From Candidatus Steffania adelgidicola (lineage in GTDB: Bacteria; Pseudomonadota; Gammaproteobacteria; Enterobacterales; Enterobacteriaceae): a stretch of 64,000 bases of DNA. The notes beneath the pieces were generated by a model. It was not told where the DNA came from and ran no database searches. It saw only the letters and a list, made by a program, of their open reading frames with translations. The position numbers and the translations under genes are program-made. Positions 1 to 51,586 of the stretch are shown here, piece after piece; position 1 is the first letter of the stretch; every line of letters starts with the position of its first letter. The stretch lies in NCBI RefSeq assembly GCF_020541225.1, contig NZ_CP045889.1, forward strand, positions 124,001-188,000. Reading direction: 5' to 3'.

Positions 1-91
1 AAAACTGTTTTAATCGATCCCGAGGGTAAGAATAAATTTTGTAACATTTGCCAAGCCCAGTAACTTGAATTGCAATTTCTTTAGAGGACAT
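1..91 (-). CDS. O-antigen/polysaccharide ABC exporter ATPase (Wzt-like), 5' fragment
   Basis: Only the first 30 codons lie in the window; the gene continues beyond position 1. Read on the minus strand from ATG at 91, it begins MSSKEIAIQVTGLGKCYKIY and continues SYPRDRLKQF. This is the typical N-terminus of Wzt/KpsT/TagH-type ATPases that power export of lipid-linked O-antigen or teichoic acid: a short lead-in, the first strand (IQVTGLGKCYKIY) and a PRDRLKQF segment. A good ribosome-binding site, AAAGGAG, sits 8 bases before the ATG (revcomp of about 99-105). The Walker motifs would lie outside the window. The Wzm permease normally found next to it is not recognisable in 92-1874. Together with wecA, rffG/rffH and a glycosyltransferase in this window it hints at a retained ABC-exported O-polysaccharide. 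The family call is fairly safe; the exact substrate is unknown. Confidence 0.7.
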   Translation of the reverse strand, partial: MSSKEIAIQVTGLGKCYKIYSYPRDRLKQF

Positions 92-480
92 TAGTAAACT
101 CCTTTCGTCTTTTAAAGATATCCAAGTAAAAACATGCTTTATCTATCTAGAAGATAGTGTTGATATCATAAAATACAGTTTTAATTCTCTATACCAATAG
201 AGGTCATTTTAATATAGTTCTAAATATATCGATGTTGTGTGATCCGAAGATTTGTTCTCTGAATAGATATGAATAAATGTTAAATATATTTTTACATGAT
301 CATTATATTAAATGGAGTATACCATTTGTTTTTTAATCGTGGTTAGTACCTGATTAATTAGATATTCTAGTTTGATTATTTAAACAGTTTTAATGTGTGA
401 TGTAGTTGAGGGTAAAACATTACCATGATTTATCTTTATTTCTGGGAAATATGTCTCTGTATCTATTTGGTTAAGTTTAA

Positions 481-500
481 TGCTCTCTCTAGAGAGAGCA
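481..500. repeat. Perfect 20-bp palindrome
   Basis: The sequence TGCTCTCTCTAGAGAGAGCA is its own reverse complement. It lies in otherwise featureless AT-rich DNA, with no gene boundary or T-run next to it, so it is not an obvious terminator. Possible explanations are a protein-binding site or chance in low-complexity DNA. Confidence 0.6.
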
Positions 501-1655
501 TGTATTAATGGTAAAATCTGATAGTGCAAGCATGAAATTTCAGTTCTCTCATCACTTATTATAGGATACCATCCTACTCTGTAGGAGTCTTGAATGACTC
601 TCGGAAAACACAATACTTTTTCTCCGGTTTAAACAAGGTGTGTGATCTTGTATATGTTTCTATATAGCGCCTGATCTTGAACAGATATAGAGCGTTATTG
701 ATGTAGATATAAAATCGAGGATTTTTATGAAATAAAAAAAGCATATAAAAGCTTAGCAGTATTCACTATTGAATATGCAACTAGTTTTATTGTTTTTATG
801 TAGAGATAACGGGTTTTTTAAAAAAATCGACATGTAACATGACTCATGCCAATTTGTTACTGGCGAAACGTTTTAAATGCGATGGATAGTAATTGATCTC
901 TATCAATATTAAAGACGATGATCTATGTACTATGTTTTTTTGATGCGATGTGTTTGAAACATCGCTCGATTTTTATTCTTAATAGTTTAGACACAGGTAA
1001 TAGTTAAGAATAAAAAAACTATTGTCTCACCTAAGAAAGCATGTAAAAAAGTCATATTTACATTCGACTAATCTTGTATATATATCGATATAAAAACGTA
1101 TTAATTAACTATCGATTTCTTTATAATAGAATATTACACAATCGCTTAGGCACATATTAGAAACTCCTATTTTTAAGTTATTTTTCCTCTTTCTAAGAAA
1201 GAGGTTGAGAGAATACTGTAGCGATATTTGTGTATGGTACCATAACTAGGCGTCTACTTACATTAGTAGACAGTAAGATAATGCCATTGAATTTCATGAA
1301 GGATTGTTAAAAAATTAAAACTTATTTTTTTGAAAAAAACCATATTCCCCCCTGGGAAGGGATATCTAGTGTAAGAAATGAAAGTATTTCAGATATAGTG
1401 TTTAACCCTATAATTTTTTATTAGAATAAGGTAATAAATACTGAGATTTTTTATGAAATGAATGACTTAAATCTTTACTTGTCTTACCTGTGCAGACAGG
1501 TGTAATTATCATTGCCCCTAATCCCATGGTAGGGGGGTGAGATTGTATATAGAGTAAAATACTCGCTACTTTCTACGTAAGATAGAAGTATAAAAAGGCA
1601 CAAGTAAAAGCACAATAAAGCAATATATATAAAAACAACTCCATTGCAGTTTGTT

Positions 1656-1664
1656 TGGTATAAT
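1656..1664 (+). promoter_or_regulatory. Candidate extended -10 promoter upstream of mnmA
   Basis: TGGTATAAT matches a sigma-70 extended -10 element (TGnTATAAT). It is about 210 bases before the mnmA start on the same strand. No convincing -35 box lies 17 bases upstream. A matching extended -10 element occurs upstream of trxA. Confidence 0.3.
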
Positions 1665-1874
1665 TTGCATATATTTATTCACGCTCTGCGTTATGGTTGA
1701 TAAACTTTCTCTAGACGTGCTTCCTGAGCAGGCTCAGTTCCTGGTCTTAGCCTAGTAGTGTGGAATACATGTGTTTTTTGCTCCTGTAAGGATTGGTTTT
1801 TAATTGTAATATAACATGTTTTTTGATTTAAGGTGCTTATCCCCCGAGTTAAATATTTTATTCGTGAGGAACCT

Positions 1875-8394: not shown

Positions 8395-9861
8395 TTAACG
8401 CATTAAATTTAGATCTAATCTGGGGATTATACATAGGTTAGTATGCTACTTTGTTTTAAATGGAGTAATATTAGTAGATGATTGCAGTGTTAGCTTATGT
8501 GTTTATGCGTTTAATTAGATTAAATAAGAGAATCATTGTAGATAAAAAAGTTTGTATTGGAGTAGAACTATTTCTTTTTAATTATGAAAAAATTTTAATC
8601 GAAATAGCTTGTTTTCTAACTTGGTAAGGTTGTTTTCACTCTCACGTTAAAATTATATTTTTGATCTTATATCAGTTCCCGTAATTGCTGTTAGCAAGAT
8701 TGTAATTATAGAAAATTTAATCTTATTATTTTTTTTTGAAGTATGTACTGTTTATGGATTATTCTAAACTTATAGAAAATACTGAACATTATATAAGTTT
8801 ATATATAGGTTGTTTAGTGTTTTATAAAATAGAAACTCTTTCTAGTCTAAATGGTACTATAAAAATATAGTGGTTTAACTATATAAATTCTTTTATAAAT
8901 TTAATTTCTTATCGAAAATTAATCAATGGAGTATTTGACGTAATATACTAAAGAATAAATAATAGTTTGCGATATAGCGTCTTTTCAGGGTTGTGAGAAA
9001 ATCTATAAAGTATCGGAAAAAATAAAAATAAAAGAATTTCTCTATATTAAATACTATTTTTATAAAAATTGGGCAAAGAGATCCGAAGTATACAATATTT
9101 TTTCATGGGGTCAATCAGTTAAAATTTGTAATTTAGTATTTAGTGGTTTTGTGATGATGAATGTCTCACATAACTGTTAAATTTCGTTCTGGTTCTGTTA
9201 GAACCACTGCATAGAAATTATAGACTAGTTTAATCATTTATTTGTGTATAATAGTTGTATTGAGTTTATTCTATCAAGTGATGCCTGGTCTAATTATTAT
9301 CTATACCTGGAGTTAACAGTGGCGTTTTAGCAACATGCTCTACGTCTTCTCTTTTCTTTTGTTACGAAAATATATTAATAGTATTTCCTTCGATTGCCTT
9401 TAGGAGTGTGCTGTTCTCTACTATCAGGTTTAATGTGCTTATATACTAGTATTTTGTTGGATCATTTTAAATGACTCAAATTTTTTCTTTCGATCGATAT
9501 GGCATCGTTTGTATACTGTATAAAAGTTAGTGCAGTCTTATTAGACTTCGAGTAATTAATATTAAACATTTTTAATGTGCCAACGCTGTAAATTTTTAAA
9601 ATTCAGTAATATCGGTGTTGGCGATAAGACAAGTAAAAAAATAAAAAGTTAAACTGTTTAAGTGTTCTTGTACGTTGCATCGGATAAGAGGAGGAATACG
9701 CATTATGATAATGTGTACATTACACCAATTAAATAATTAAGTGGTGTAATGCTTTTTTTGCATTGGGTGTCTATTTTAAAATGTTAAAAATAATAGATAC
9801 GTTTATAGTATGCTTTCCTGCGTTTAGGAAAGGCTTTATAAGCCAGTAAACTTATAGTAAT

Positions 9862-9987
9862 ATTGAACCTATTTGAACTATTTGAACTATTTGAACTATT
9901 TGAACTATTTGAACTATTTGAACTATTTGAACTATTTGAACTATTTGAACTATTTGAACTATTTGAACTATTTGAACTATTTGAACC
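9862..9987. repeat. 9-bp tandem repeat, 13 perfect or near-perfect units
   Basis: The unit ATTTGAACT is repeated head to tail from 9871 to 9987 (13 units; the last ends in C), preceded by a variant unit at 9862-9870. The array is bounded on both sides by TTGAACCTATT. The period is a multiple of three, so the minus strand reads Ser-Asn-Ser repeats, but no gene is supported. It probably grew by replication slippage in unconstrained DNA. Copy number may vary within a population, and short-read assemblies may have collapsed it. Confidence 0.9.
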
Positions 9988-10422
9988 TATTGATGTGTAA
10001 AAATTACAAGTTCGAGAATCTATTGCACATGAAGCATGGTGCTTGATATAGTTGGTTAACAATAATGTCTCGAATATATTAGTGAGATCTTGAACAGATA
10101 TTTATACTGTTTAGATTCTAAGTGTTTCACTATATTTTATGCGATCATTTCTCTTATATTTTAATTTACCAAATAAGGCTTAAAGAGAATATTTTCAAAA
10201 CGAAATTATGCTTTTTTATAATAAACATGTTAAATTATCCTGCTTTTTTACAGGGATAAAACTATGTCCCGGCGTGTGGAGATAAAAGTATTCTATTGAA
10301 AGATTTAAGATACAACTTTTACACATTGACAAAAAATAAATTAATTATTTTTTTTCTTATGGTTTGTTTTAAAATTAAATATATCAGGTTAAAGCAAATC
10401 ATTTTCTATGGTTAGGCTTGTT

Positions 10423-11554: not shown

Positions 11555-14500
11555 ATAGTATACGATACTACGCACAAGAAAGATAACTGTGGCTTCGGGT
11601 TAATTGCTCATATAGAGGGTGTCAGCCTACCCGTAAAATAGTACACATCGTTATTCGTGCGCTAGCCTGAATGCAACATCGTAGTGCGATCTTGGGCGAT
11701 AGGTAGACTGGTGACGGTTGTGGTCTGCTATTGAAAAAAAACGTATCGATTTTATCGTATGCTAGCGAAGGAGAAAGGCTGGTTATTGGCGAAACACTAT
11801 AGCTGTTGGCATGATCTTCCTAAGTCAAGATAAAGAAGCTCACTTTAATCGCTGTATCGTCGAAAAAGAGATTAAAAACGAGATCTTGTCCATTGTAAGT
11901 TGGCGTTTAGTTCCAATTAACACCGACGTTCTTGGTGATATCATTCGATCTTCGTTGCCACGAATTCAACAGGTTTGTGTTAATGCCATTCTTGATTGGG
12001 AACTGCAAGCGATAGAACGTCGTTTATATATGGCGTGCCGTCGTATTAAAAATCTCGGTGATGATAATGTTTTGTATATTTGCAGTTTGTCCAGCTTAGT
12101 CACTGTCTATAAAAATTTGTGCATACCGGAAGATTTGTCGTATTTTTGTCTTGATCTTTCTGATATACGTCTAAAATCATCTATCTGCCTATTTCAGTAG
12201 CGTTTCTCAACAAACACAGTTCCTCGTTGGGCGCTGTGTAATCTTTGCGCTATCTCGCGTATAACGGTGAATTTAATACCATTATACTGGTGGTAACCGG
12301 AAGTGTGTCAAATGCGCGCGCCTACAAGTGAAAAGCATCTCTCATTCCCGATTTGTAGGACGCTTGCCCCTTCCTTAATCAATCTGGTTTAGATTCGAGC
12401 TCTCTGGATAATATGCTAGAGTTGTTTTTAAATGGAGGAATAGATTTTATCCGTGCTATACGCCTACTTATACTACCCGGCTGGCCGCATAATCTAAATA
12501 TGGATCTAGATCTTTGGGTCTTTTTCGCACTAAATTCTATGCATATATAGCTATAGGAAGACCCTGTTAGCCTGGTGATATTCGATGGCCGATTTACTGC
12601 TTTTACTCTAGATCGACACGGTCTGCGTCCGGCACGTTATGTCATCACTACGGATAAGCTGATCACTTGTGCTTCTGAGATTGGCATATGGGATTACCAA
12701 CTACATGAAGTAGCGGAAAAAGGCCGCGTATACCCTGGTGAACTAATGATTATTGACACGACTACTGGACGTATTATGCACTCTGAGGAAACTGACTCCG
12801 ATCTGATAAGCTGTTACCCCTATAAAAATGGATGGAGCAAAATGTCTGCCGTTTAACACCATGTGCACTGCTGTCTATTCAATCATGGATTATTTACGAT
12901 TATTTTCGTCAACGGTGCGCGCAGGTAGTAACTAACCCGCCTATCGACTCACTGCGTGAAGTGCATGTGATGTCATTAATTACATATGTTGGTCGTGAGA
13001 TGAATATTTTCTGTGAAGTAGAAATCCAGGCATCTCGATTGGCAATTAAATCGCCTAGAGTCCTATGTACTGAATTTACTCATCTTACGTTACAAGAGTC
13101 TGATCATTACCGTTCTAATAAATTAGAGATTATCTTTGATGCGGCAAAAGTAAGTCTGCATAACACAATATTAAACTTATGTATTCAAGTGGAAGAAATG
13201 GTGTATCAAGGAACAGTGATTTTAGTTCTAAGTGATCGCACTATCGCCCCCGGATGGTATCCTGGTGCTAGCCATGATGGCAGTAGGCGCTATTTGTACT
13301 CGTTTAGTCGAAAAAACTTGCGATGTGATGCTTACGTAATTATTGAAACAGCGAGTGCGCGTTATCCGTATCATTTTTCGGTACTGTTAGGTTTTAGCAC
13401 TACTGCGATCTATCCATTTTTAGCCTACGAAAGTCTAGCTAGTATGGTGGATAACAAGATCATTTATAATTACTATCGTACAGTAATATTAAATTTTCGT
13501 CATGGTATTAATAATAAGCTGTACAAAATTATGTCTAAAATGGGTATTGTGACCGTTTCCTCTTATCAATAATCAAAGTTGTGTAAAGCGGTTAGTTTGC
13601 ACAATGACCTAACGGAACTATGTTTGCATAGGGTAGTGAGCCGTATCAGCGGTGCTAGCTTCAGAGATATTTTAAGTTAGATTTACTCAATCTCGCTAGA
13701 CGTGCCTTGCTGAAACATAAAGTGATCAAACAAGGTGATTTACTGAAATATATCTACGGTGGAGAAGATAGTATCACGCGTATAATCACGATGTCGTACG
13801 TACCCTGCAGCACGCGGTGCTGAGCGGTAATCGAAAGGACTATCGTGAGTATGCAGATCTGGTTAATCAGCGTCCGATTGTGACGCTGCGGTATTTACTA
13901 TAATTAGAATTTAACGGCCCGATGATCGCGTTGGATCAGGTGGAGAAGGCTGGAATGTGTTTTAAAACGATTTGATACTGCCGCGATGTCTATCGGGGCG
14001 CTCAGTTCGGAAGCGTGTGAGTCGCTAGCTCAAGCAATGAGCGGACTAGGGGGTTTTTCTAATTCCGGCGAGGGCAGAGAGAATCCTTCTTGTTAGAGAA
14101 GCGATAAGGTTTCACGCATTAAACAGGTAACTTCTAGTCGCTTTAGCGTTACAGATCGCTGATCTAGTTAATGTGGCGGACGTTATTCAAATTAAGATAG
14201 CCCAGTGAAGGTAGCCAACTGTCTGGAGATAAGGTTACATCATATATTGCACGTCTACGCTATTCGGTACTTGGTATGACGCTCATTTCACCACCTCCTC
14301 ACCATGATATCTATTCGATAGACGACCTGGAACAAGCTTATTTTAAATTTAAAGCAGGTAAATGAAAAAGCATTAATTTTAGTTAAGCTAGTATCGGTAC
14401 CCCGTGTAGGTACCATTGCCATTGGTATCGCTAAAGCTTATGCGGATTTGATCACCATCGCTGGCTACTACGGTGGTACCGGAGCTAGCTCGATTTTCTT

Positions 14501-15856
14501 ATTAAGACATGCTGGCTTACCCTGGAAATTAAGATTAGCGGAAACTCAGCAAGCACTGGTGGCTTTAATGGACTCCGTTATAAAGTCCACCTCTAGGTAT
14601 ACGGTAGGCTCAAAACGGATAAAGACATTATCAAGGCAACTATCCTTGGTGCAGAAAGTTTGGCTTTTAAAACTGCGCCAATGGTAGCGCTAGGATGTAA
14701 ATATTCGCGGATCTATCACCTCAATAACTGCGCTACTGTCTTTGTAACACAGAACGAAGATCTGCGTCGAAATCATTATCATTATCTACCGGAATGTGTA
14801 AGAAATTATTTTCTATTTATCGCACAGAAATGTCGTGAGATTATGGTACAGCTCGGCGTGACTCAGCTTGTAGACCTCATAGGCTGTACTGATTTTTTGC
14901 GTAAGAGTGAGGGAATGACTACTCAACAGAATAAACTAGATCTTTCGCTATTCCTCGTTACTGCTCACCCCTATTTGGGGCAATCTCTTTATTGTACTGA
15001 GAACAGAAACTCGCCTCTTGTTCGGGGTTTCATGAATAACCGCTTGAATAAACAGGTAATTCCTTACGTGGATACGAAATAGAGTAAGAGTTTTAATTTT
15101 AATATCCAAAATACCGATCGTTCAGTAGAGGCGTCATTATTAGGCGTGATCGCCGATATTTACGGTGATACAGGTTTATCTTTAAATCCACTTACAACCT
15201 ACTTTACCGGTAGGGCTGGACAAAGCTTTGGGATGTAGAACGCTAAAAGTCTATAGCTAACCTTGACTGGTAATTCTAACGATGATGTTTGTAAGGGAAT
15301 GGTCGGGGGTAGTATTGTAATTAAAGCGCTACTGTGTTCAGCTTTTTTAAGTTATCAAACCACTATTATTAGCAATACTTGTTTGTATGGTGGGACCACG
15401 GCGGCAGCTGTTTACTGCCGGGAGGGCCAGGGAACGTTTCTCAGTACGTAATTTTGGTGCTACGACGGTAGTATAAGGAATAGGTGATAACGCTTGTGAA
15501 TATATGACTGGCGGGATTGTCTGTGTGTTAAGCCGTACTGGTATTAACTTTGGTGCTGGCATGACTGGCGGTTTTGCTTATGTGCTCAATGAGCATAATG
15601 ACTTTAGAAACTTTGTGAATCTAGAATTAGTGAAGGTTTTAACTTCAGTTGATTTGCCTATGTATGAAAAACATTTGCATGGATTACTTAGCAAGCACGT
15701 TGACCTAACTGTTTTGCACCGAGGAAAAGAACTATTGACTTATTAGTCTCCGTGGTTGGGCCGTTTAGCGCTAGGAAATGCTAAATCAAGCGTTCTGAAA
15801 GTATTATTAGGAAATAATAACCCCAGTGTATGGTAGAATTGCATCTGAAAGGGTAG
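11555..15856 (+). pseudogene. gltB: Glutamate synthase large subunit GltB, broken
   Basis: In life this enzyme transfers glutamine amide nitrogen to 2-oxoglutarate. Homology to enterobacterial GltB runs almost from end to end in all three forward frames. It starts VYDTTHKKDNCGFGLIAHIEG (the Cys of DNCGFG is the glutaminase nucleophile), and later blocks include [31 protein letters not shown] and NFGAGMTGGFAYVLNE. The position of the start codon reads ATA instead of ATG (11555). The first in-frame stop is at 11639. Further stops and frameshifts occur throughout, and about 60 codons are missing near 12860 (between NVCRL and SWIIYDYFRQ). The longest surviving open segment is 12832-13572. The gene is followed by gltD in the native order. 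It is clearly non-functional but decayed recently enough to be readable. Confidence 0.95.
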
Positions 15857-15869
15857 GCAGAGGTTTATA

Positions 15870-17211
<1,342 letters not shown>

Positions 17212-17249
17212 TACAAGCTCCATCGGTTACATAGAGTGTGTATATACGC

Positions 17250-17756
17250 TTACTTCACTAGGTGTAATGCCCTTCGTTGGCTATTGCTATTTATCTTGGT
17301 GTTTTTCTCTTTATCTTTAATGGTATTTATTTTGGTATTACTTGATTGATTAGTATCAATCACCGAGAGGATGCTTGTTATGTCTAAATGTTTGGTATTG
17401 CCTATGAGTGGTGGCTGCTTCTTATAAGCCGGTTCTGATTCAAACATCGTACCAGCGCCATTTTCGCGTGCATAGATAGCTAGTACGGCTGCCATGGGTA
17501 TTATAACCTGTTGTGGTACATGATTAAATCGGGCATTAAACTGCAAGTTGTCATTGCAGATTATCAGGTTTATTATGGCACGAGGCGCAATATTTAGTAC
17601 AATTTGACCATTAGAAGCAAACTCTGTTGGTACTATTACACCCTCTAAATTGATATCAACCACCAGATATGGTGTTAATTCATTATCAATTAACCATTTG
17701 TAAAATGCTTCTAATAAGTAAGGACGGCGCGGTGACATCTGAGTTACTTGTTGCAT
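17250..17756 (-). CDS. sspB: ClpXP protease specificity-enhancing factor SspB
   Basis: SspB binds ssrA-tagged proteins made on stalled ribosomes and hands them to ClpXP. The 168-residue protein has the full substrate-binding domain (TPRRPYLLEAFYKWL is matched by SPRRPYLLEAFYKWL; also GQIVLNIAPRAI and AAVLAIYARENGAGTMFE). It ends in LHLVK, corresponding to the ClpX-binding tail LRVVK of E. coli. The linker between these is lysine/asparagine-rich and contains two NTKIN copies, whereas the E. coli linker is acidic. The gene begins 4 bases after the sspA stop, the usual sspA-sspB operon. It ends tail to tail with the gltD pseudogene; in E. coli gltBD and ssp are also chromosomal neighbours, so the intervening genes were deleted. 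Confidence 0.95.
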   Translation of the reverse strand: MQQVTQMSPRRPYLLEAFYKWLIDNELTPYLVVDINLEGVIVPTEFASNGQIVLNIAPRAIINLIICNDNLQFNARFNHVPQQVIIPMAAVLAIYARENGAGTMFESEPAYKKQPPLIGNTKHLDITSILSVIDTNQSSNTKINTIKDKEKNTKINSNSQRRALHLVK

Positions 17757-27383: not shown

Positions 27384-28460
27384 ATGGTGACGCATTGTGT
27401 TACTATTTTTCTGTTTTCTTTGGTTTGTTTATTTTTAGCGCGCAAGGTTGCCAAAAAAACAGGACTTCTTGATAAACCAAACCACCGTAAACGGCACCAA
27501 GGGCAAATACCTCTTGTCGGTGGTATTTCTATTTACGCCGGTATTTGTTTTACCTGTCTCTATATAAACCATTATATTCCCCATGTAGATCTGTATCTTA
27601 TTTGTGCCGGTATCCTGGTTGTGACTGGCGTACTTGATGATCGGTTTGATATTAGCGTACTGGTACGTACCATTATTCAAGCGCTAGTCTCGGTGGTTAT
27701 GATGGTGTATAGCGGTCAGTATATTAATAGCCTAGGATATATCTTTGGACCATATGAGGTCATTCTTGGACCTGGGGGATATTTGGTGACGCTCTTTGCT
27801 GTATGGGCAGCAATTAATGCTTTTAATATGGTGGATGGTATTGATGGCCTTTTAGGCGGACTGTCCTGCGTGTCTTTAAGTGCGATAGGTATCTTTTTCA
27901 TACTGGAAAATCATGCTCGATTAGCACTATTGTGCTTTGGCATGATTGCTTCCGTGTTGCCTTATATTTTTTTTAATCTTGGTTTTTTCGGACAGCACTA
28001 TAAAGTGTTTATGGGGGATTCTGGTAGCACTATGATCGGGTTTACTATTATCTGGCTTTTGCTTTACAGCACTCAAGGGTGGGGGCATCCAATGAATCCG
28101 GTAACTGGGTTATGGATTATTGCCATACCCCTAATGGATATGATAGCTATTATTTACCGCCGTCTTCGAAAAGGAATGAGTCCGTTTACGCCTGACCGGC
28201 AGCACATTCACCACTTAATCATGCGTGCAGGGTTTAGTGAACGGCAGGCCTTTATCATCATTACATTTACCGCCGCTCAGCTAGCATTTTTTGGTATGGC
28301 TGGAGAACGTTGGCTGCATTTACCCGAGTCGGTCATGTTGTTACTCTGGCTCGGGGTATTATTAGTATACGGCTACGTGTTGAAGTGTCCGATTCGCTTG
28401 ATTCAATTTGTTAAGCGAAGCAAGCGACGATTTATGCGGTATAGGAAAATTCTACTTTAG
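27384..28460 (+). CDS. wecA: Undecaprenyl-phosphate GlcNAc-1-phosphate transferase WecA
   Basis: WecA moves GlcNAc-1-phosphate from UDP-GlcNAc to undecaprenyl phosphate, the first step of ECA and of many O-antigens. It is a polytopic inner-membrane enzyme. Conserved sites include KRHQGQIPLVGGISIYAG, the aspartates in GVLDDRFD, AFNMVDGIDGLLGG, KVFMGDSGST and the RQHIHHL loop. The 358-residue product is slightly shorter than E. coli WecA at the N-terminus. I took ATG 27384; a TTG at 27330 would add 18 poorly conserved residues, so the start is uncertain. It occupies its native place after rho, but wzzE, wecB and wecC, which should follow, are gone. This suggests it now serves O-polysaccharide rather than ECA. 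Confidence 0.93.
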   Translation: MVTHCVTIFLFSLVCLFLARKVAKKTGLLDKPNHRKRHQGQIPLVGGISIYAGICFTCLYINHYIPHVDLYLICAGILVVTGVLDDRFDISVLVRTIIQALVSVVMMVYSGQYINSLGYIFGPYEVILGPGGYLVTLFAVWAAINAFNMVDGIDGLLGGLSCVSLSAIGIFFILENHARLALLCFGMIASVLPYIFFNLGFFGQHYKVFMGDSGSTMIGFTIIWLLLYSTQGWGHPMNPVTGLWIIAIPLMDMIAIIYRRLRKGMSPFTPDRQHIHHLIMRAGFSERQAFIIITFTAAQLAFFGMAGERWLHLPESVMLLLWLGVLLVYGYVLKCPIRLIQFVKRSKRRFMRYRKILL

Positions 28461-31186
28461 GAATTGAAGTGAAAAAGACTAGAAATCTTAAGTTCTTCTT
28501 TGCCTCCTGCGAAGACCTTCGAATTTATCATAATATAGAGAGCGTATATAGTCTTTGTGTTCCTTACAATATTGTAAGATTAATCGATATGTTACTGTAG
28601 AAGTAAAGAAGTGAGTTTCATGTAGCCAGGGATGATTTATTATTGTTATTAGCGATAAACTGAAATTCAATATACTACTTACATTGTTTCGTTAGAAACG
28701 ATTTCTATTGAATCTATATTCTGAAATATCAGTTTTTTAAAATGTTTAGTTATTCTCAATTGCTAATTCAATAGGTGAAGAATTTTGGTGACTTTATTTA
28801 TAAGAGAAATGCCAAAAATGGCACCTTGCCAATATTTACTTCCCGTTATATAAGAAAATATTTATTATTCCGATAAGTGCTCATTAGATAATGGAATACG
28901 TATTTATAGGCTCTGGGATAGGATAAGGGAGATTAAATATTTGTCGCCTACCTTTACCTTTTTTATTGTTCCGACCGGCGTTTTTTTAGATATGCTACTG
29001 ATTTTGGGATGGTATCTATTGTATTTTAAGTTTCCGCTTATTTTTAGAATTTTGGCAGAATCTTTAAAGTTTTTTTATTTTTGATAAATGCCTAAACGCC
29101 ATTTGTATAACTGTTTCTAGTTCTGAATAATTGTCAGGATTTTAAGATCTTTCTGTGTGAGATATCTGAGAGATTATTATATTATTCCCCTTTTAGGGCT
29201 GTTTGTAATCGTTCGCTATGAAAGTATATATATAATATCCTCTCCAAGAGTCTTGGCAAAATTGTAGCTCTATATTCATTGGTAGAAACCAATGCTTGTG
29301 GACGTTTGGATAGATTTTTAAATTATATTTTTCTAGTTGGTATTACCATTACCAGCTTTAGAAGTATATTATTATATTTTATTATATTACATTACATTGA
29401 TCCTATTTTCCTTGAATTAGACTTTATTTAAAAATGGGAATTTAAATTTACTACTGGTATCCTAAATCAATATTGTTTTGATGTCTGTTGATAACGTGTG
29501 TAATATTTTTCGAGAAGAGTTTATTAATATTTTAACTTATGGTAATTACTAATAAACAATAGGTATACGGTTATTTATAATAGGTCGCAAGGAGACGGCA
29601 TGTTAGTCTACAAAAGAGGGTGATATTTTCTTCAATTTTCCATAAAATATTTTTAGATACTGAATACAGACTTCAAGGTTGTATTAATAATTAAATGGCA
29701 TGTATATCGTCCCGGCGTATATTAAGTAAAATTCTTCAACTATCGAAATTATTACCAATGCATCGTTGTTCTTAACGGCAACGATTCTAGAAGTTTTATG
29801 ATTTCCGATATTTCTAATGCGCGATTTATAGATGCATGAAATTATTATTTGTTTAATCTAATCGGTTATGTAATAGTCATTATTACAGATCCTAGCAGGA
29901 TCTAGAAATAGTTAGATTATCGGAATCATAATAACTATTAAACATAATAAGATACTCTGATCAGAGTATAGAGAGCACTGTAAGGTTAATGGAGATGCAT
30001 AAGCAAGTAAATTAGAAATGGTATCGTATTTTCTGTATTATTTAGTCTGTGACTATTATATGGCATTCTTTAATAATTAACCTTAATTACTTAGTACTAT
30101 TGATGATGTAAAGACTCCTGAGAGAGAGGATCAAGAAGAACATATGGTAGGAATTAAATTCCATACTTAAAGAAGTATCTTCTTTAGAAGAATAGAAGAA
30201 TAGAAGAATAGAAGAATAGAAGAATTTTTAGTGAAGTTTTATTGTATCTTTGCAGTGATTATTTTCCAATATCAAAAGTAATCTTAATTAAAAATTATAA
30301 CTATAATTGTTTATGGTTGAGTGATGCAGATCTATCTTTTGATAAAACAGCGGATAAATTACTTCGTAAATATTTTCTTTCTTAAGAAAGAAAATAGGGA
30401 ATATTTTTATTTCCAAACCGTTCTGTATCTTAGTTAATGTTCTTTTTACGTAGATAAGAAATAATATTTTGTATAAAAGAAAACAGAAACCATTAAAATT
30501 ACGCTAAAAAAGACTTTAAAAATTACGGATTGATTTTTTAAAAATATAAAAAATCTTCTAGAAATGTTATATAAATAATTAAGATGTAATGTTTATAAGT
30601 ATGTATTATTGGATAGGATGGAGTGTCATATTTTCCTGTAAAGTTCAGTTGGAGAATGCTACGGTTTCTCTTTTGTAAATTTTTCACGAAGTATTGATAT
30701 GATTGTATATCAGATACATTCAAGCTATATTGAAAGGCATTAACAGTTAATTGTATGTTTTATAAAAACACATCTCTATAGAAATACAGGTATTCGGTGG
30801 CTTTTAGGTAAAGCGTGATATAAAGTACAGTCTTAACTCACCATTACATTCGAAGAGAAATACTATAATTAAGTAATTGCATATAGGGTTATAGAGAATC
30901 TAGTAGGGCTATACTACTATAGTTCTTTTCTGAAAAGAAAAATCTATACTATATCGATATATTTAATTCAATAATAAAGATTGTCGTAATTGTTTTTTTG
31001 CAATAAATTCCATTGGAGTTTATGAAATATTGCCACAAGTTTATACTTGAATTTTTTAAAAAAAACAACACACACTTTTTGGTATATGCGATGATTACTA
31101 TTACTACAAATCATCGTCAGTGCCTTATCTTTACGTTATATGCGATTTATCAGCGCTGTATGGCGGATGCGCGGGAGGGTGTGGTT
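28461..31186. other. 2.7-kb desert where wzzE-wecB-wecC should lie
   Basis: In enterobacteria wzzE, wecB and wecC lie between wecA and rffG. Here the interval has no recognisable coding sequence, only AT-rich DNA and an 8-bp tandem array at 30185-30222. By gene order this is the scar of those three genes, eroded beyond recognition. The open frame that extends upstream of rffG (31013-31186) is not conserved. Confidence 0.65.
30185..30222. repeat. 8-bp tandem repeat (AATAGAAG, about 4.75 copies)
   Basis: A partial TAGAAG is followed by four perfect AATAGAAG units. It lies in non-coding DNA. It resembles the 7-bp ATAGAAT array at 10904 in composition but not in period. Confidence 0.9.
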
Positions 31187-32260
31187 ATGAAGCGGTTATT
31201 AATTACCGGAGGTGCCGGATTTGTTGGTTCGGCGTTGGTGCGATATATCCTCGGGACGACCGAGGATAGAGTACTGGTTGTAGATAAATTGACCTATGCT
31301 GGTAACCTTGACTCATTAGCGGCGGTCGCGTCTCACCCTCATTACTATTTCACTCGTACTGATATTGGTGATGGTAAGGCAATAGCATTATTACTTTTAG
31401 ACTTTCAGCCCGATGCCATCATGCATCTAGCGGCGGAAAGTCATGTTGATCGATCTATTGACGGTCCTTCGGCTTTTATTGATACGAACATTACGGGTAC
31501 TGCTATTCTTTTAGAAGCGGCTCTTAGATACTGGGAGTCCTTGCCTAAGGCTAAGCGTGCTTCCTTTCGTTTCCATCATATATCAACCGATGAAGTCTAC
31601 GGTGATCTGCCCGATAACGGTACCCGCTTTCATGAATGTTCGCCTTATATGCCTAGCAACCCGTATTCTGCTACAAAAGCTGCCAGCGATCATCTGGTTC
31701 GCGCCTGGATGCGAACTTATGGTTTACCAGTCCTAGTGACTAATTGCTCCAATAATTATGGTCCGTATCATTTTCCAGAAAAGTTAATTCCACTGATTAT
31801 TATTAACGCGATTTCAGATAAGCCAGTACCAGTTTATGGCGATGGTAGACAAATTCGGGACTGGCTGTATGTGGAGGATCATGCCCGCGCTCTTTATCAG
31901 GTGGTAACCCGCGCGCTTCCCGGGGAAAGCTATACGATTGGTGGTCATAATGAGCGTCGTAACATAGAGGTAGTAGAAACACTATGTGCGTTACTGGAAC
32001 AGGCTGGCGCGCCTCATCCTCCCGGTGTCACGACATTTAGACAACTTATTACGTTAGTAGAAGATCGCCCGGGGCACGATCGGCGTTATGCAGTTGATGC
32101 TGAAAAAATTTTTCGTGAGTTAGGTTGGCAGCCTAAAGAAACGTTCGAAAGTGGTTTAGCTAAGACCGTGCAGTGGTATTTAACCCATCGTGCGTGGTGG
32201 CAGCGGGTTTTAGACGGTAGTTATCACGGTGAACGTCTTGGTCTTGGCCCCCGCCAGTAA
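31187..32260 (+). CDS. rffG: dTDP-glucose 4,6-dehydratase
   Basis: This enzyme converts dTDP-glucose to dTDP-4-keto-6-deoxyglucose, the branch point to dTDP-rhamnose and dTDP-Fuc4NAc. The 357-residue protein is an extended short-chain dehydrogenase. It has an N-terminal NAD-binding motif ([15 protein letters not shown]), [12 protein letters not shown], the catalytic [11 protein letters not shown] and [10 protein letters not shown] (Tyr and Lys of YxxxK), and [16 protein letters not shown] chose ATG 31187 because homology starts there and GGAGGG stands 8 bases upstream; the longer open frame before it is not conserved. It is the ECA-locus paralogue (rffG rather than rfbB) by its position after wecA and before rffH, whose start is 14 bases downstream. 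Confidence 0.95.
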
Positions 32261-32273
32261 GGTTAGGAGAAAG

Positions 32274-33155
32274 ATGAAAGGTATTGTTTTAGCAGGTGGC
32301 ATAGGTAGTCGTCTTTATCCAATCACTCGCAGCATTTCCAAACAGCTATTGCCTATATATGATAAGCCAATGATTTATTATCCCTTGTCGGTATTGATGC
32401 TAGCAGGGATTCAAGACATTCTAATTATTACTACCCCGGAAGAGATGTCGTTGTTTAAACGGTTACTCGGGATTGGTGAAGCATTTGGGATTCGTCTAAC
32501 ATATGCCCCTCAGGCAAATCCAGATGGTATTGTTCAGGCGTTTTTAATTGGTGCAAGTTTTATTGGAGATGATTGCTGCTGTCTAGTGTTAGGCGACAAT
32601 ATCCATTTTGGTAAGGGGTTTACTCCTATGCTACGGCAGGTGGCGACTCGCGAGCAGGGTGCAACACTCTTCGCGTATCAGGTAATGGATCCTGAACGAT
32701 TCGGTGTGGTAGAATTTAATGACGATTTTCATGCTATTTCCCTTAAGGAAAAACCGATTCGCCCCTGCTCATGTTGGGCGGTAACGGGTCTTTATTTCTA
32801 TGATCGTCAAGTAGTTGATTTTGCTAGACGGGTTAGGCCATCAGTACGTGGTGAATTAGAGATCACTTCTCTTAATCAAATGTATCTAGAGCAGAATAGA
32901 CTGAAGGTCGAGCTACTCGGAGTCGATTTTTCTTGGCTAGATACGGGTACCCATGACAGCCTGATAGAGGCTAGTACCTGCGTGCAGATGGTTGAGAAGC
33001 GGCAAGGATTTAAAATCGCTTGTTTGGAAGAAATTGCTTGGAAAAACGGATGGCTTGATGATGAAGAGGTAAGACGTGCGGCTCAGGAGCTGGCAAACAC
33101 AAGTTATGGTCAATATCTGAAAAATTTAATCTATATCCATTCGTGTCAGTATTAA
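32274..33155 (+). CDS. rffH: Glucose-1-phosphate thymidylyltransferase
   Basis: RffH makes dTDP-glucose from dTTP and glucose-1-phosphate, the substrate of the preceding dehydratase. The 293-residue protein has the nucleotidyltransferase signature [46 protein letters not shown] and [11 protein letters not shown]. The start at 32274 has TAGGAGA just before it. rffG and rffH form a two-gene unit. The downstream ECA genes (wecD, wecE, wzxE, wecF, wzyE, wecG) are gone. The pair therefore probably feeds dTDP-rhamnose or another deoxysugar for O-polysaccharide, which would need rfbC/rfbD homologues outside this window. Confidence 0.95.
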
Positions 33156-36139
33156 TCATTTAGGGAGTTGGGAATGTTTTTTGCTGCTGTTTTTTCTGTA
33201 TCGCATTTTATTATGTAATGAAGTTTATAGATATTTCTAGTACTAATAGGATTTATTTTGTATAAATAAATATTGTAGTAACAATCGAGATATTCTTTAT
33301 CGTTATCTGTTCTATTTCGATATGATCATGAAAGTATTTTTATAACTAAGTGTATATATAGTTTCTAATTAATATATAATTTTATCGCTTAGTCTTGTTC
33401 ATGGTATTGGATAACATGGTATTTAGTCCAGGATAAATGTTGTGATGATGTCTCTATATTGTGAGAGAACAACAAATCTAAAGATTTAATTATTTTTTGA
33501 GAAAATCATTTTATTGTATTTGTTTTGGGTTAGTGCCGGATAATATCCTGAATAAATAGAGGTTTTTCTAAAAACGTGATGGTGTGTGGGGGTCAGGCCT
33601 ATATTTTCAATAGAACTATATATAATGCTATCGACTCTTTATAAAAAGAGTGTGGTTTTCCCTCATGTAAAACACTTTTTTTCTTGAGTAGAATTCTCTC
33701 TGAGACAGATGATATCTGGTTGAAGGGGGGGGAATTTGTTATTTTTATATGCTAGGAGTGGGGGATATTAGTCAAACGCGGCAGACAACATTAAAATTGC
33801 GCGATTAAGTGTTCAACAGGAATTCGTTTATTTTTCTTGCCAGAATCAAGATGGGTAACCTTTTCTAAAATACTTCATTTACACTCATATATCCAATTGT
33901 TGCGATATAGATCGCACTAATGAGTTCTACGTATCGCAATAAGATTAAAAATCATAGCTGAAGTGACACTTCTTATATGATAGAGAATAAATTGTTCTCC
34001 TCCGTATTTATCAATTGCTAATAAACAATGGAAAGGAATTGTTAGATTATCTTTGTGGTCAGAGGAGACATGGCACTATAAAAATATAATGAGCTGATTG
34101 TATCAAGAGATTGGTGATCTTTTATCGTACGAGCGTATCTGCGCGTGCATACTCTTGTTAAGAGATGTAAAACTAGCGCGGAACTATTGACCATTTAGGT
34201 AAAGATGTTGAGATTGTACTACAGCGATAAATTTGGCTCTCAAAATAAGAAATGGATTTTATTATTCGTTATATAATAATAAACAAGCTGTTTCAACCTA
34301 CAGGAAGTTAATACACAGTTAACGTTAATATATGAAAGATACTGTATATCCTATTTTAGGATATGTAATAAAAAGTGACTCATGATTTTAACGCTAAACT
34401 ATTCTTTATTACTGTGAGAAGTCCACTTTCTACTTATAGAATAGATGGTGTATGTAAAAGAGTGATTTATGTTCGTAAGGCGAAGAGCGGAAAAATGTCT
34501 GACCTTAAAGCCGAAGCATTAGTAAAAAAATATTCGGCATATTGATTTCTGAATATCATCTATACAGATAATAAAGCACCAAAGAAGTATTATATCACGT
34601 GGTATCACCCATATCATCATAATAATGATATTACGCGATGATAAGTCCTATGTTTTTTATTTTTCTGAGTACTGAGAGTGATCCTTGCATTATATCTCAT
34701 CGTGAGGTTAAGGATGTGAAATAACAGTATTAGGATTGTTTTTAGTAGCGATGTAGTCAAAGGAAGATTTATATTTTAAAAAATCCATTTTTAATTCAGC
34801 ACTATAAGAATAGTGTATATCTTCATCACTTAATATCTTTGCTTTCGGTATCAAAATAGGTAAATGTGTAAGATTTTTAATATATGGGGTTTAGTTTAAA
34901 ATAATAAATACTAGCAGAAATCGGATATATCGGTCTAGTTTCGTATTATCTTTTAAAGATACTGTATGTATGCGGAATTAGATTCAAGTAGTATAGTGCA
35001 TATTTGAGAAGAGTTCGATATCACTGGTGTCTCTTGTGAGAGAGGATGTTCTTGTTCTTTTGTTTATCTTCTAAGATAAAATATTAGAGAGTTCATGCTG
35101 TTTCCTTAAAGTTCGGTCGGTGTTGAATTAGCAGAAATACTAAAAACCTTTATCAGTTAGTTTTGTTTGCGTAGTAAATAGATGCGTTATTTTTCAGAGG
35201 AGAGTTTACTGGATATCACGTTGACTGAGAATACCTTGCTGGCAGTGTTGCAAGTGAAAAATAGATAGGAGAATTTACATGCAAACGAAATCCCGAGGTA
35301 ATTATATATATTATTTTACACTTGTTCACACTAATTCTGCGATGGGGTGAGTAAACAAGTTATCGCAAGACTCAAGAGTCCATCAGATTTTCAACGCCCT
35401 GTTAGAGGTAAAGGTGCTCGATCGAATAGAATATTTATATATTTACTAGATATGATTGGAGAGAAGACTATCGCTTTCTTTCTCCATCTTTAAAGGTAAT
35501 GAGTCTATCTCTATAAAACGTTATCGATATAATATTAAAAGTGTTAATGCAGTTCATGAGTATGCCGTTCTAAATTAAGTTTTTCGGCGTCGTTACGATA
35601 ATGTGTGATACGAAAAGAAAACTTCCTAATATGATTAGGATTGATGGTGGTCAATACCAGTTTAGGTATGTGTATCCAAAGCAGTGTGTAAATAGTAATT
35701 TAATGTTGTTTGGGATAAACATCCCATGATATTTGTTAGGGTAGAAACAAGAATAGATCGTAGGTTAATTTCGAAATAATTTTCTTTAAATTACAGGGGA
35801 TAGGGTATTTTTCTTGATGTATTGGTGTTACATATGATGTAATATATCCGGAATCATGCTTACAGTGATGCCATGAATCATCATTGAAAGAAACGTAAAA
35901 AACGCAAAAACTAGCGTTCTAGATTAATTGAGGATGGGTTAAAAATAAAGCGTAGACAGTTACTACTGAAATCTATGGGTATTTTCAGAATTAATATAAT
36001 ACTAGCACGGAGGAAATTGTTTAAGTATTAGGAATGATAGTTCTTTCTAGAAGAAAACTCTTTAATGCGTTGCATCGCTAGCAGTGATGTAGCAACATGT
36101 CTATAATTTCTGTTCTGCCTAAATACTTATCCAAGTACT
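33156..36139. other. 3.0-kb desert where the distal ECA genes should lie
   Basis: No recognisable gene. By comparison with E. coli gene order, wecD, wecE, wzxE, wecF, wzyE and wecG followed rffH; nothing of them is readable by eye. The right part leads into broken pgsA, which in E. coli follows uvrC in a different region, so at least one rearrangement or large deletion joins the two loci here. A small CTCTTT/AAAGAG hairpin lies near 33637. Confidence 0.6.
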
Positions 36140-36611
36140 ATGCAACTGAATATACCGACTTGGTTTACCCTATTACACCTTCTCATTATATCGTTTCTTG
36201 TTCTAACTTTCTATCTACCTTTTAAGTGGGCGGCGCCTTGTGCAGCGCTGATTTTTATTTTGGCGGCATGGACAGATGGGTTTGGCGGATTTTTAGCTCG
36301 CCGGTGGAAACAAACAACCCATTTTGGGGCGTTTCTAGATTCTGTTGCGGATAAAGTGATAGTTGCAATGGCGTTGCTTTTGCTTGCAGAGCATTATCCA
36401 CTCGTGATGGATAACGTGGCCATCGGCAACCATGATCGCCTGTGAAATTTTTATTTCAGCATTGCGTCAGTGGATGGCAGCGATTGGTAAACGTAATTCT
36501 ATAGCAGTTGCGTGGATTGGCAAACTGAAAACCGTTACACATTTGATAAAATCATCTATTATTATAATAATATTGCCGTATTTTACAGGTATATCACGGT
36601 TGGTCTTTTAA
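36140..36611 (+). pseudogene. pgsA: Phosphatidylglycerophosphate synthase PgsA, broken
   Basis: PgsA makes phosphatidylglycerophosphate, precursor of phosphatidylglycerol and cardiolipin. The first frame (36140-36445) gives [16 protein letters not shown] through [22 protein letters not shown]. The CDP-alcohol phosphatidyltransferase motif D-x2-DG-x2-AR-x8-G-x3-D-x3-D reads [11 protein letters not shown], so its second aspartate is Gly. Homology then switches frame near 36425 ([23 protein letters not shown]) and ends at TAA 36609-36611, about 35 residues short. A frameshift, a lost metal-ligand residue and a truncated C-terminus together make function very unlikely. The tRNA genes that follow pgsA in E. 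coli are not present. Confidence 0.92.
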
Positions 36612-50440: not shown

Positions 50441-51586
50441 GTGAGGTATGACAAATATCGCTTAGCGATAGTGCGGCAAAGGTATCGGGTTGATGGTGGT
50501 GCCGAACGTTTTATTTCTCGCACTTTAGAAGCGCTGCATGACAGCAGATTAGAGTTAAACATCATCACCCGACAGTGGTCGGGTGAAACGCAGTCAGACT
50601 GGTGTGTACATATTTGCAATCCTGGCGGGAGAAGTCGGATTGCACGTTTGCAAGGTTTTAATATTGCCGCCCGGAAGTATTGGAAAAAGCAGAACTTCGA
50701 TCTAGTGCAGAGCCATGAACGCATTGTAGATTGTGATATATTCCGAGCTGGTGATGGTGTTCACCGGGCGTGGTTGGAACAACGAGCGCGGATTATTCCT
50801 TCTTATCAGCGCTACCTAACGAAAATTAATCGTTATCATCGCTACGTATTAGCAGCAGAAAAAGAAATGTTTCATTCATCAAAACTAAAGAAAATTATTT
50901 GTAATTCAGCGATGGTACAAAGCCAGATCATGTGTCATTATGGGGTAACTAAAGACAAATTCGCATTGATTTATAACGCTATTGATTCGCGGCATTTCCC
51001 CCCCCCTGTCGAAGGACAGAGGCGGGTTGCCAGAGAGATTTTATCGATTCCAGAGCAAGCCTGTACGCTAATTTTCGTTGGTTCCGGTTTTGCACGTAAA
51101 GGGCTGCGTCAGGCTATTTTTGCGGTAGCTCCTACTAATCGCTATCTAATCGTTGTCGGAAAAGATAAGCAACAAAGTCGTTATGAGGCTTTGACAAAGA
51201 CTTTAGATTGCCAGGATAGAGTCCGTTTTATAGGAGTCCAAGAAAATGTTCTACCTTTCTATCATGCGGCAGATGCACTAATTTTACCGACGTTATACGA
51301 TCCGTTTCCAAACGTGATACTGGAGAGTATGTCTTGCGGCTTACCGGTAATTACCAGTCAAACCTGTGGAGGGGCAGAGTTTATCAACCAGGGTCGAGAG
51401 GGTTTTGTGTGCGATGCTTTGGATATCGGTAGTTTACAAGCGTTTGCGGCCGAAATACCATGTAGAGATCGAGACCCCACCATGGGAACGGCAGCACGCC
51501 AACGTGTTAGCACTTATACCCCCGAAAATTTGTCACATCAGCTCATTGGGCTATATCAGCAACTCCTATCTTGTTCTATAAGATAG
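50441..51586 (+). CDS. GT4-family glycosyltransferase, probably LPS core
   Basis: The 381-residue protein is a GT-B fold retaining glycosyltransferase. It starts YRLAIVRQRYRVDGGAERFI (acceptor-side N-terminal domain with the GGAE motif), has FVGSGFARKGLRQAI at the domain junction, and VGKDKQQSRYEAL and PTLYDPFPNVILESMSCGLP (nucleotide-sugar site with the E-x7-E pattern) in the C-terminal domain. It resembles the WaaG/WabH group of core-oligosaccharide hexosyl- or GlcNAc-transferases found in Serratia- and Klebsiella-like bacteria. I cannot assign the sugar. The start is GTG 50441; an overlapping ATG at 50448 is out of frame. No other LPS-core gene is adjacent. Together with wecA, rffGH and the Wzt-like ATPase it supports continued LPS synthesis. 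Confidence 0.85.
   Translation: MRYDKYRLAIVRQRYRVDGGAERFISRTLEALHDSRLELNIITRQWSGETQSDWCVHICNPGGRSRIARLQGFNIAARKYWKKQNFDLVQSHERIVDCDIFRAGDGVHRAWLEQRARIIPSYQRYLTKINRYHRYVLAAEKEMFHSSKLKKIICNSAMVQSQIMCHYGVTKDKFALIYNAIDSRHFPPPVEGQRRVAREILSIPEQACTLIFVGSGFARKGLRQAIFAVAPTNRYLIVVGKDKQQSRYEALTKTLDCQDRVRFIGVQENVLPFYHAADALILPTLYDPFPNVILESMSCGLPVITSQTCGGAEFINQGREGFVCDALDIGSLQAFAAEIPCRDRDPTMGTAARQRVSTYTPENLSHQLIGLYQQLLSCSIR

What the first reader, a model, noticed from the sequence alone, without database searches (positions are those of the whole stretch)
27384..33155. ECA locus reduced to wecA, rffG and rffH
In E. coli the order is rho-wecA-wzzE-wecB-wecC-rffG-rffH followed by six more genes. Here only wecA, rffG and rffH remain intact, in register, between deserts of 2.7 and 3.0 kb. 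The survivors are exactly the steps shared with O-antigen synthesis (lipid-linked GlcNAc and dTDP-deoxyglucose), which suggests selection for LPS rather than ECA.
Basis: partly seen in the sequence, partly recalled or inferred. Interest (0 to 1): 0.55.

Follow-up and report, generated by a model that had tools for sequence, protein, structure and literature searches.

The report
ECA remnant feeding scattered O-antigen genes
In this shrunken insect-symbiont-like genome, the three surviving genes of a lost surface-sugar locus fit the first steps of another surface sugar (an O-antigen) whose other synthesis genes survive scattered over the chromosome, but the membrane channel that should export it could not be found.

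Summary
Between rho and pgsA only wecA (27384-28460), rffG (31187-32260) and rffH (32274-33155) are intact. Of the other nine wec-locus genes only a 48-residue wzzE ghost is detectable.

Elsewhere in the 1.37 Mb chromosome, in four places, rmlC, rmlD, a WbbL-like rhamnosyltransferase, a 1199-residue WbbB (GT99 Kdo terminator plus polymerising modules), a full-length Wzt with sugar-binding domain and a WaaL-type ligase are intact. With WecA, RffG (=RmlB) and RffH (=RmlA) they form a synthesis route for a Klebsiella O12-type rhamnose/GlcNAc O-antigen. Wzt begins inside this window (1-91, minus strand). No second RmlA or RmlB was seen, though neither had its own genome-wide search.

The twist: Wzm, the membrane half of the exporter, rings nowhere, neither by Pfam profile nor with a Wzm that is 75-91% identical to those of three related clusters. 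No Wzx-family flippase rings either. Synthesis looks complete; export is unexplained (recent loss, unseen replicon, or unrecognised partner).

Three published Sodalis genomes were described the other way round (O-antigen enzymes lacking, ECA possibly made). New variant of a known kind.

The parts
27384..28460 (+). wecA: UDP-GlcNAc:undecaprenyl-phosphate GlcNAc-1-phosphate transferase, intact (358 aa from ATG)
   Evidence: TIGR02380 477 bits over cut-off 326; 79-80% identity to the nearest Sodalis WecA; pN 0.113-0.115 vs pS 0.69-0.72 against L024, L023, G004
28461..31186 (.). eroded stretch where wzzE, wecB, wecC stand in relatives; GC 0.28
28642..28785 (+). wzzE remnant (48 residues)
   Evidence: E 0.006-0.007 with two relatives; 28.5 bits vs maximum 26.2 of 200 resampled controls
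31187..32260 (+). rffG (RmlB): dTDP-glucose 4,6-dehydratase, intact (357 aa)
   Evidence: TIGR01181 486 bits over cut-off 365; 84% to Sodalis endolongispinus RffG
32274..33155 (+). rffH (RmlA): glucose-1-phosphate thymidylyltransferase, intact (293 aa)
   Evidence: TIGR01207 464 bits over cut-off 361; 82% to Sodalis endolongispinus RffH
33156..36139 (.). eroded stretch where rffC, wecE, wzxE, wecF, wzyE, wecG stand in relatives; GC 0.32; no remnant recognised
1..91 (-). 5' end of wzt (442 aa; continues to contig base 122763 outside the window): ATPase of the O-antigen exporter with Wzt_C sugar-binding domain
92..1832 (.). eroded stretch upstream of wzt, where wzm lies in three related clusters; GC 0.30 (120-1832); no significant Wzm similarity, at most a 10-residue C-terminal stub overlapping the wzt start

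Best explanation
A Sodalis-type symbiont lost ECA but kept wecA, rffG and rffH because they are the first steps of an O12-type, ABC-transporter-class O-antigen. Proposed route: WecA makes Und-PP-GlcNAc; RffH, RffG, RmlC and RmlD make dTDP-L-rhamnose; the WbbL-like enzyme adds the first rhamnose; WbbB polymerises a rhamnose/GlcNAc chain and caps it with beta-Kdo; the Wzt sugar-binding domain reads the cap; WaaL joins the chain to lipid A-core. Shown here: the nine genes, their open frames, their scatter over five places (85.5, 119-124, 151-157, 887-889 and 1127 kb), and constraint on the three ECA survivors. Inferred: enzyme activities, repeat unit, and that the pathway runs today. The membrane subunit Wzm is missing from the held sequence, so export is either recently lost, supplied from a replicon not in the assembly, or done by something unrecognised (the first two rivals below are versions of this export question).
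For: rmlC open at contig 85501-86052. rmlD followed by a WbbL-like gene at 888.7-887.0 kb (60% and 63% to the same neighbours in unnamed G277, same order rmlD-wbbL). WbbB 1199 aa at 122760-119161: GT99 domain E 4e-52, PDB chains 8cse and 5fa0 E about 7e-86; full-length 55-57% to homologues beside wzm-wzt in G393 and an E. coli plasmid. Wzt 442 aa without stops, C-terminal domain E 1.4e-60 to 5hno. WaaL-type ligase 401 aa. Of 4 RmlD_sub_bind matches, one is RffG; the others are RmlD, an epimerase-like protein below the RmlB cut-off, and a weak 311-aa match that I did not identify. G277's cluster carries rmlC-rmlD-wbbL-wzm-wzt-GT99 protein without rmlA/rmlB in the 16 kb fetched. PMC11231755 (passages): Klebsiella O7 has rmlD and rmlC among seven genes, all K. 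pneumoniae O-polysaccharides start with WecA from the ECA locus, and O12 WbbL adds Rha to Und-PP-GlcNAc. Constraint: pS 0.69-0.79 vs pN 0.09-0.12 against L024, L023 and G004 in three of three survivors.
Against: Wzm absent: PF01061 0 matches in the whole genome though it rings in 14 of 14 control genomes, 13 over the cut-off; G277 Wzm, 75% and 79% identical to Wzm of G393 and L143 and 91% to G296's, 0 matches at E<=10 (the tool warns that an empty answer without a positive genome shows nothing by itself). A three-sequence Wzm HMM gives best E 1.6 on frames of 228 kb of held own sequence, and 2.0 bits (E 0.04 in a six-sequence set) on the stretch upstream of wzt, which I take as chance. L030 keeps wecA without rffG/rffH, WbbB or Wzx. 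The WbbL assignment is by homology and neighbourhood only (Pfam E 3.4e-4, no PDB match). For rmlC, rmlD, wbbL, wzt and wbbB only distant homologues were at hand, with saturated synonymous sites, so present constraint on them rests on open frames. In E. coli the absence of all Wzx flippases is lethal unless ECA synthesis is stopped earlier (PMC7439462 passages), so keeping synthesis without export should be costly.
Confidence: 0.75

Rival explanations
1. The O-antigen route was used until recently and is now dead because wzm was deleted; wecA, rffG, rffH and the scattered genes are intact only because there has not been time to decay.
For: No Wzm match anywhere; a possible 10-residue Wzm C-terminus still overlaps the wzt start; broken genes of recent date exist in this genome (gltB/gltD pieces still recognisable at GC 0.40).
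Against: The stretch upstream of wzt is as AT-rich (GC 0.30) as the old ECA deserts (0.28, 0.32) rather than like gltBD (0.40) and shows no significant Wzm similarity; nine genes in five places, one of 3.6 kb, have open frames. A single deletion could still be recent.
Confidence: 0.35
2. wzm sits on a plasmid or other replicon that is not in the held one-contig assembly, and the O-antigen is exported normally.
For: The held genome is one contig of 1,369,541 bp; related clusters with Wzm at about 80% identity to G277's are carried on enterobacterial plasmids; the other parts of the pathway have open frames.
Against: No plasmid of this organism was seen; wzm is next to wzt in G277, G393 and L143, so a split would itself be unusual; completeness is listed as 99.98%.
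Confidence: 0.25
3. wecA is kept in Sodalis symbionts for some other use of Und-PP-GlcNAc, and rffG/rffH only for another use of dTDP-deoxysugars unrelated to an O-antigen.
For: L030 (Sodalis sp. Ffu) keeps wecA open and constrained (pN 0.078 vs pS 0.687 against L024) while rffG/rffH and the rest of ECA are decayed, and has no WbbB or Wzx match.
Against: In the present genome the fitting consumers of both products are intact. In L030 many ECA remnants are still recognisable, so wecA there may simply not have decayed yet; other O-antigen genes of L030's genome were not searched.
Confidence: 0.12
4. Chance survival: no selection on the three genes at all.
For: Any reduced genome may keep some genes by chance (inference).
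Against: Synonymous sites near saturation with pN 0.09-0.12 in all three; longest chance frame 186 aa in 500 simulations.
Confidence: 0.03

Closest known systems
Klebsiella pneumoniae O12 / Raoultella terrigena O-antigen (WecA, RmlABCD, WbbL, WbbB, Wzm-Wzt, WaaL; gene list partly recalled)
   Same: WbbB with GT99 Kdo-transferase terminator; the two catalytic residues named in PMC9587256 (Asp232, Glu158; one-residue offset inferred from Arg12/Trp20) align to D and E. Wzt with a C-terminal domain matching 5hno (that 5hno is the O12 Wzt domain is recalled). WecA, RmlABCD and a ligase present.
   Different: Genes scattered over five places; RmlA/RmlB are the ECA copies RffH/RffG; Wzm not found; the spacer between GT99 and the polymerase differs (17-19% identity to L143 and G393); repeat unit inferred, not measured. 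The full-length R. terrigena WbbB was not compared, only its solved GT99 part.
Plasmid-borne cluster rfbB-rfbA-rfbD-rfbC-GT2-permease-ATPase-glycosyltransferase (E. coli p503-IncFIB, NZ_CP090307.1, L143)
   Same: WbbB 57%, Wzt 70%, GT2 57% identical
   Different: Compact, has its own rmlA/rmlB and wzm
Enterobacterial common antigen locus
   Same: Position after rho, order wecA...rffG-rffH
   Different: Nine of twelve genes gone; no Wzx-family match in the genome
Other Sodalis genomes (SOPE, S. glossinidius, strain HS; PMC3914690 passages)
   Same: Sodalis lineage by WecA identity
   Different: These three are described as lacking O-antigen enzymes but possibly able to make ECA: the reverse of this genome
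Reduced Pantoea stink-bug symbionts (PMC8032781 passages)
   Same: Loss of ECA in reduced genomes
   Different: There rfbBCD is absent from all genomes under 2 Mb and rffG is lost with the ECA genes; here at 1.37 Mb the rhamnose route has all four genes

Membership tests
O12-type ABC-transporter-dependent O-antigen pathway | WecA initiates with GlcNAc-1-P | tested here: met
   intact wecA, TIGR02380; gene present, activity not tested
O12-type ABC-transporter-dependent O-antigen pathway | dTDP-L-rhamnose supply (RmlA, RmlB, RmlC, RmlD) | tested here: met
   rffH, rffG, rmlC, rmlD
O12-type ABC-transporter-dependent O-antigen pathway | WbbL-type rhamnosyltransferase on Und-PP-GlcNAc | tested here: inconclusive
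   277-aa homologue, 62-63% to the gene in the same place in G277, 57% to L143; weak Pfam match, no PDB match; activity unknown
O12-type ABC-transporter-dependent O-antigen pathway | WbbB: GT99 terminator plus two polymerising GT modules in one chain | tested here: met
   PF21912 and PF00535, PDB 8cse/5fa0; the third module has no Pfam match but aligns at 54-57% to G393 and L143
O12-type ABC-transporter-dependent O-antigen pathway | Wzt ATPase with C-terminal carbohydrate-binding module | tested here: met
   442 aa, ABC_tran and Wzt_C, 5hno E 1.4e-60, no stops
O12-type ABC-transporter-dependent O-antigen pathway | Wzm membrane subunit | tested here: not met
   PF01061 0 of 1 genome, Wzm protein 0 of 1 at E<=10, HMM on 228 kb best E 1.6
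O12-type ABC-transporter-dependent O-antigen pathway | WaaL ligase | tested here: met
   Wzy_C 69 bits over cut-off 31.7, 401 aa
O12-type ABC-transporter-dependent O-antigen pathway | O-polysaccharide on the cell surface | not testable with these tools
   needs LPS chemistry
ECA pathway | WecB, WecC, WecD(RffC), WecE, WecF, WecG, WzyE, WzzE at the wec locus | tested here: not met
   0 of 8 at E<=1e-3 in the window; only a wzzE ghost
ECA pathway | WzxE flippase anywhere in the genome | tested here: not met
   PF01943 0 matches in G000; matches in 4 of the 5 other genomes searched, not in G046 (L030's genome). Caveat: WzxE of G043, G004 and G041 match only at E 1e-4, 1e-8 and 4e-9
ECA pathway | wecB/C/E/F/G elsewhere in the genome | tested here: inconclusive
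   228 of 1370 kb examined: only ArnB as a distant WecE relative

The most novel reading that the evidence does not exclude
The symbiont runs a working O-antigen exporter in which Wzt no longer pairs with Wzm: either a membrane partner outside the ABC2_membrane family has taken over, or the Kdo-capped rhamnan stays on the inner face as an undecaprenyl-linked glycolipid read by Wzt. Wzt and WbbB would then have been maintained without the classical channel since about the time the ECA locus eroded.
Probability: 0.1. Interest if true: 0.8.

Novelty: new variant of a known kind. Interest (0 to 1): 0.52.

Why it matters
It shows which parts of two interlocked surface-sugar pathways can be kept when a symbiont genome shrinks: ECA goes, O-antigen synthesis stays, with the shared enzymes surviving in place inside an eroded locus. 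That is the reverse of what is described for three other Sodalis genomes (PMC3914690) and contrary to the loss of rfbBCD below 2 Mb in Pantoea symbionts (PMC8032781). The missing Wzm gives a clean test of whether a Wzt can serve without it, or of how long a blocked undecaprenyl-linked pathway can persist.

Tried and rejected
Rejected: chance frames; a still usable ECA route; an rffC remnant at 32974-33114 (E 7e-8): this is rffH DNA read in another frame, because the relative's rffC frame was taken stop to stop. Rejected: a second RmlB at contig 977 kb (335 aa): TIGR01181 144 bits, cut-off 365, similar score to GalE. Rejected as an ECA gene: ArnB, which matches WecE at 32%.

Led nowhere: Wzm search on the desert upstream of wzt (best 2.0 bits, E 0.04 in a six-sequence set, not at the expected place next to wzt); the possible 10-residue Wzm stub is weak because it overlaps the wzt start and its ribosome-binding region. 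Papers PMC4850311 and PMC5321029 (O12 Wzt, WbbB) are not held, so what I say of them comes from citing passages in PMC9587256 and PMC11231755 or from recall. Of the five papers that I opened (PMC9587256, PMC7439462, PMC3914690, PMC11231755, PMC8032781) I saw passages only. Paper searches for Sodalis or endosymbiont with O-antigen, Wzt, rhamnose or wecA listed no title or abstract describing this arrangement; PMC12212991, PMC7305143, PMC6156193 and others were seen only in listings.

Limits: dS is saturated or not computable for many pairs (NG86 with Jukes-Cantor), so I give pN and pS. The organism is called Sodalis-type from WecA identity (80% to two named Sodalis), not from a species tree. 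RmlA was looked for only in 228 kb, RmlB only through the RmlD_sub_bind profile. Names such as galE and gnd for neighbours in G277, and WbbL for the GT2 genes, are mine, by eye and homology.


Full report
What the sequence shows. The window is contig bases 124001-188000 of a single-contig genome of 1,369,541 bp listed as 99.98% complete. Its WecA is 80% identical to that of Candidatus Sodalis sp. SoCistrobi and Candidatus Sodalis endolongispinus, the first two of the 80 loci kept. The E. coli wec locus was projected onto the window by tblastn: trxA, rho, wecA, rffG and rffH match over nearly their whole length; the other nine locus proteins do not match at E<=1e-3. With the proteins of five relatives (L023, L024, L027, L028, G004) and a threshold of E<=1, the only trace below E 0.1 inside the two deserts is 48 residues of wzzE at 28642-28785, which scores 28.5 bits where the best of 200 resampled deserts scores 26.2. 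The deserts are 2726 and 2984 bp, GC 0.28 and 0.32.

Constraint. Against L024, L023 and G004 the three survivors have pN 0.088-0.115 and pS 0.694-0.793 (rffH without L023); rho has pN 0.010-0.014 and trxA 0.132-0.136 at pS 0.69-0.74. Against the more distant L027 and L030 both measures are higher (pN 0.15-0.21, pS 0.79-0.87). dS is saturated, so I do not lean on omega values, but the excess of synonymous change is clear in all three. Simulated deserts never gave a frame above 186 aa (500 runs).

What the survivors feed. Own-genome searches found rmlC without an open neighbour for more than a kilobase on either side at contig 85501-86052; rmlD at 888.7-887.9 kb with a 277-aa GT2-like gene directly after it on the same strand; a 1199-aa protein at 122760-119161 and directly upstream of it a Wzt; and a Wzy_C-type ligase at 1127.9-1126.7 kb. 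The 1199-aa protein has an N-terminal GT99 domain and a GT2 domain; its first 380 residues match the solved GT99 domain of WbbB at E about 7e-86, and the residues aligned with Asp232 and Glu158 are D and E (offset of one inferred). PMC9587256 (passages) describes WbbB of R. terrigena and K. pneumoniae O12: two C-terminal modules make the Rha-GlcNAc repeat, the GT99 module adds beta-Kdo, and the cap is read by the exporter's sugar-binding module. The Wzt here is 442 aa without a stop, begins at window base 91 on the minus strand, and its C-terminal part matches chain 5hno_A at E 1.4e-60. In 392 genomes drawn from the family, six hold a match at E<=1e-100: this genome, one other full-length (G393, 55%), and four with the GT99 part only (G277, G296, G193, G415). 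Of 12 chosen genomes, seven of them reached through the loci nearest in WecA (L023, L024, L025, L027-L030) and one Serratia symbiotica, none but this one holds WbbB; one (G044) has a marginal match (E 8e-4) to a glycosyltransferase stretch.

Why rffG and rffH. In G277 the cluster reads galE-rmlC-rmlD-GT2-wzm-wzt-GT99 protein-gnd with no rmlA or rmlB among the frames of the 16 kb fetched (names by eye and). In the plasmid cluster L143 it reads rfbB-rfbA-rfbD-rfbC-GT2-permease-ATPase-glycosyltransferase. The present genome keeps rmlD next to the GT2 gene as in G277, and its rmlD, rmlC and GT2 are nearer to G277 (60, 66, 62%) than to L143 (42, 53, 57%); its WbbB, however, is like those of L143 and G393 (57, 55%) and only in the GT99 part like G277's. 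I infer an ancestral G277-like arrangement that leaned on RffG/RffH for rmlB/rmlA. K. pneumoniae O7 is described with rmlD and rmlC as its rhamnose genes among seven (PMC11231755 passages). Partial redundancy of the ECA copies with RmlA/RmlB, and use of wecA for O-antigens beginning with GlcNAc, are stated in PMC7439462 (passages).

The missing exporter. Wzm is next to wzt in G277, G393 and L143, and these and G296's are 70-91% identical. The ABC2_membrane profile, which matches G277 and G393 Wzm at E 1e-25 or better, has no match in this genome, while it rings in 14 of 14 control genomes. The G277 Wzm protein has none at E<=10. The Wzx profile has none either (matches in 4 of the 5 other genomes, but weak ones for WzxE itself). 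The 1.7 kb upstream of wzt is eroded (GC 0.30); at most ten residues of a Wzm C-terminus overlap the wzt start. A blocked Und-PP pathway is expected to be costly: in E. coli, lack of all Wzx flippases is lethal unless ECA synthesis is stopped earlier (PMC7439462 passages). Intact synthesis without export is thus the real puzzle. Recent deletion, an unseen replicon, or an unknown partner are all open. The Wzt ATPase domain is 74-77% identical to its three homologues, which are 76-83% identical to each other: slightly more diverged, which does not suggest long disuse.

A caution. Sodalis sp. Ffu (L030) has an open wecA with its other ECA genes decayed, many still recognisable, no WbbB and no Wzx match. 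So wecA can outlast ECA without this O-antigen. The argument for O-antigen use rests on the whole set, above all on rffG/rffH plus rmlC/rmlD/GT2/WbbB/Wzt/WaaL, not on wecA.

Comparison with what is known. SOPE, S. glossinidius and strain HS are said to lack O-antigen enzymes and perhaps to make ECA (PMC3914690 passages). In stink-bug Pantoea symbionts rfbBCD is absent from all genomes under 2 Mb (PMC8032781 passages). Here both are reversed. The parts are all known; the arrangement (dispersed, ECA-supplied RmlAB, Wzm-less) is not described in any title or abstract that my searches listed.

Verdict. Observation confirmed; interpretation partly supported, with the synthesis half strongly so. Because a defining part of the O12-type pathway (Wzm) was tested and not met, I say that it works like, and descends from, an O12-type O-antigen pathway, not that it is a complete member.

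Noticed in passing
window 11811-17349: gltB and gltD (glutamate synthase) are broken into several recognisable pieces at GC 0.40, so probably much younger pseudogenes than the ECA deserts.
   Followed up: partly
window 36140-36445 and just downstream: pgsA (phosphatidylglycerophosphate synthase) is cut: the first 86 of 182 profile positions match in one frame, and by eye the following part reads on in another frame.
   Followed up: partly
L123:8410-15781 (contig 803.4-810.8 kb): Open arnB, arnC, arnA, arnD, arnT and two small genes after them (lipid A aminoarabinose modification) in a 1.37 Mb genome: a further hint that LPS structure is under selection.
   Followed up: partly
L030:10007-11077: Sodalis sp. 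Ffu (1.375 Mb) keeps wecA open while the rest of its ECA locus is in ruins, many recognisable. What uses its Und-PP-GlcNAc is unknown.
   Followed up: partly
L094: Serratia symbiotica PERIS-14S keeps wecA and a nearly full-length wecC match while wecB gives none and others are fragmentary.
   Followed up: no
L143 (NZ_CP090307.1) and plasmid hits: O12-like O-antigen clusters lie on plasmids: one read in full in E. coli; Wzm and full-length WbbB matches also in Klebsiella and Citrobacter plasmids.
   Followed up: no
window 9784-10062: A stretch that reads SNSSNSSNS... in one frame, that is a nine-base repeat, in an otherwise non-coding region.
   Followed up: no
window 50441-51586: Lone GT4 glycosyltransferase (381 aa) of unknown acceptor upstream of pth and ychF; could belong to the LPS core.
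   Followed up: no
L110:15811-16773: 320-aa gene between a GT4 and the O-antigen ligase with no match in NCBIfam at 1e-10 or Pfam at 1e-3.
   Followed up: no
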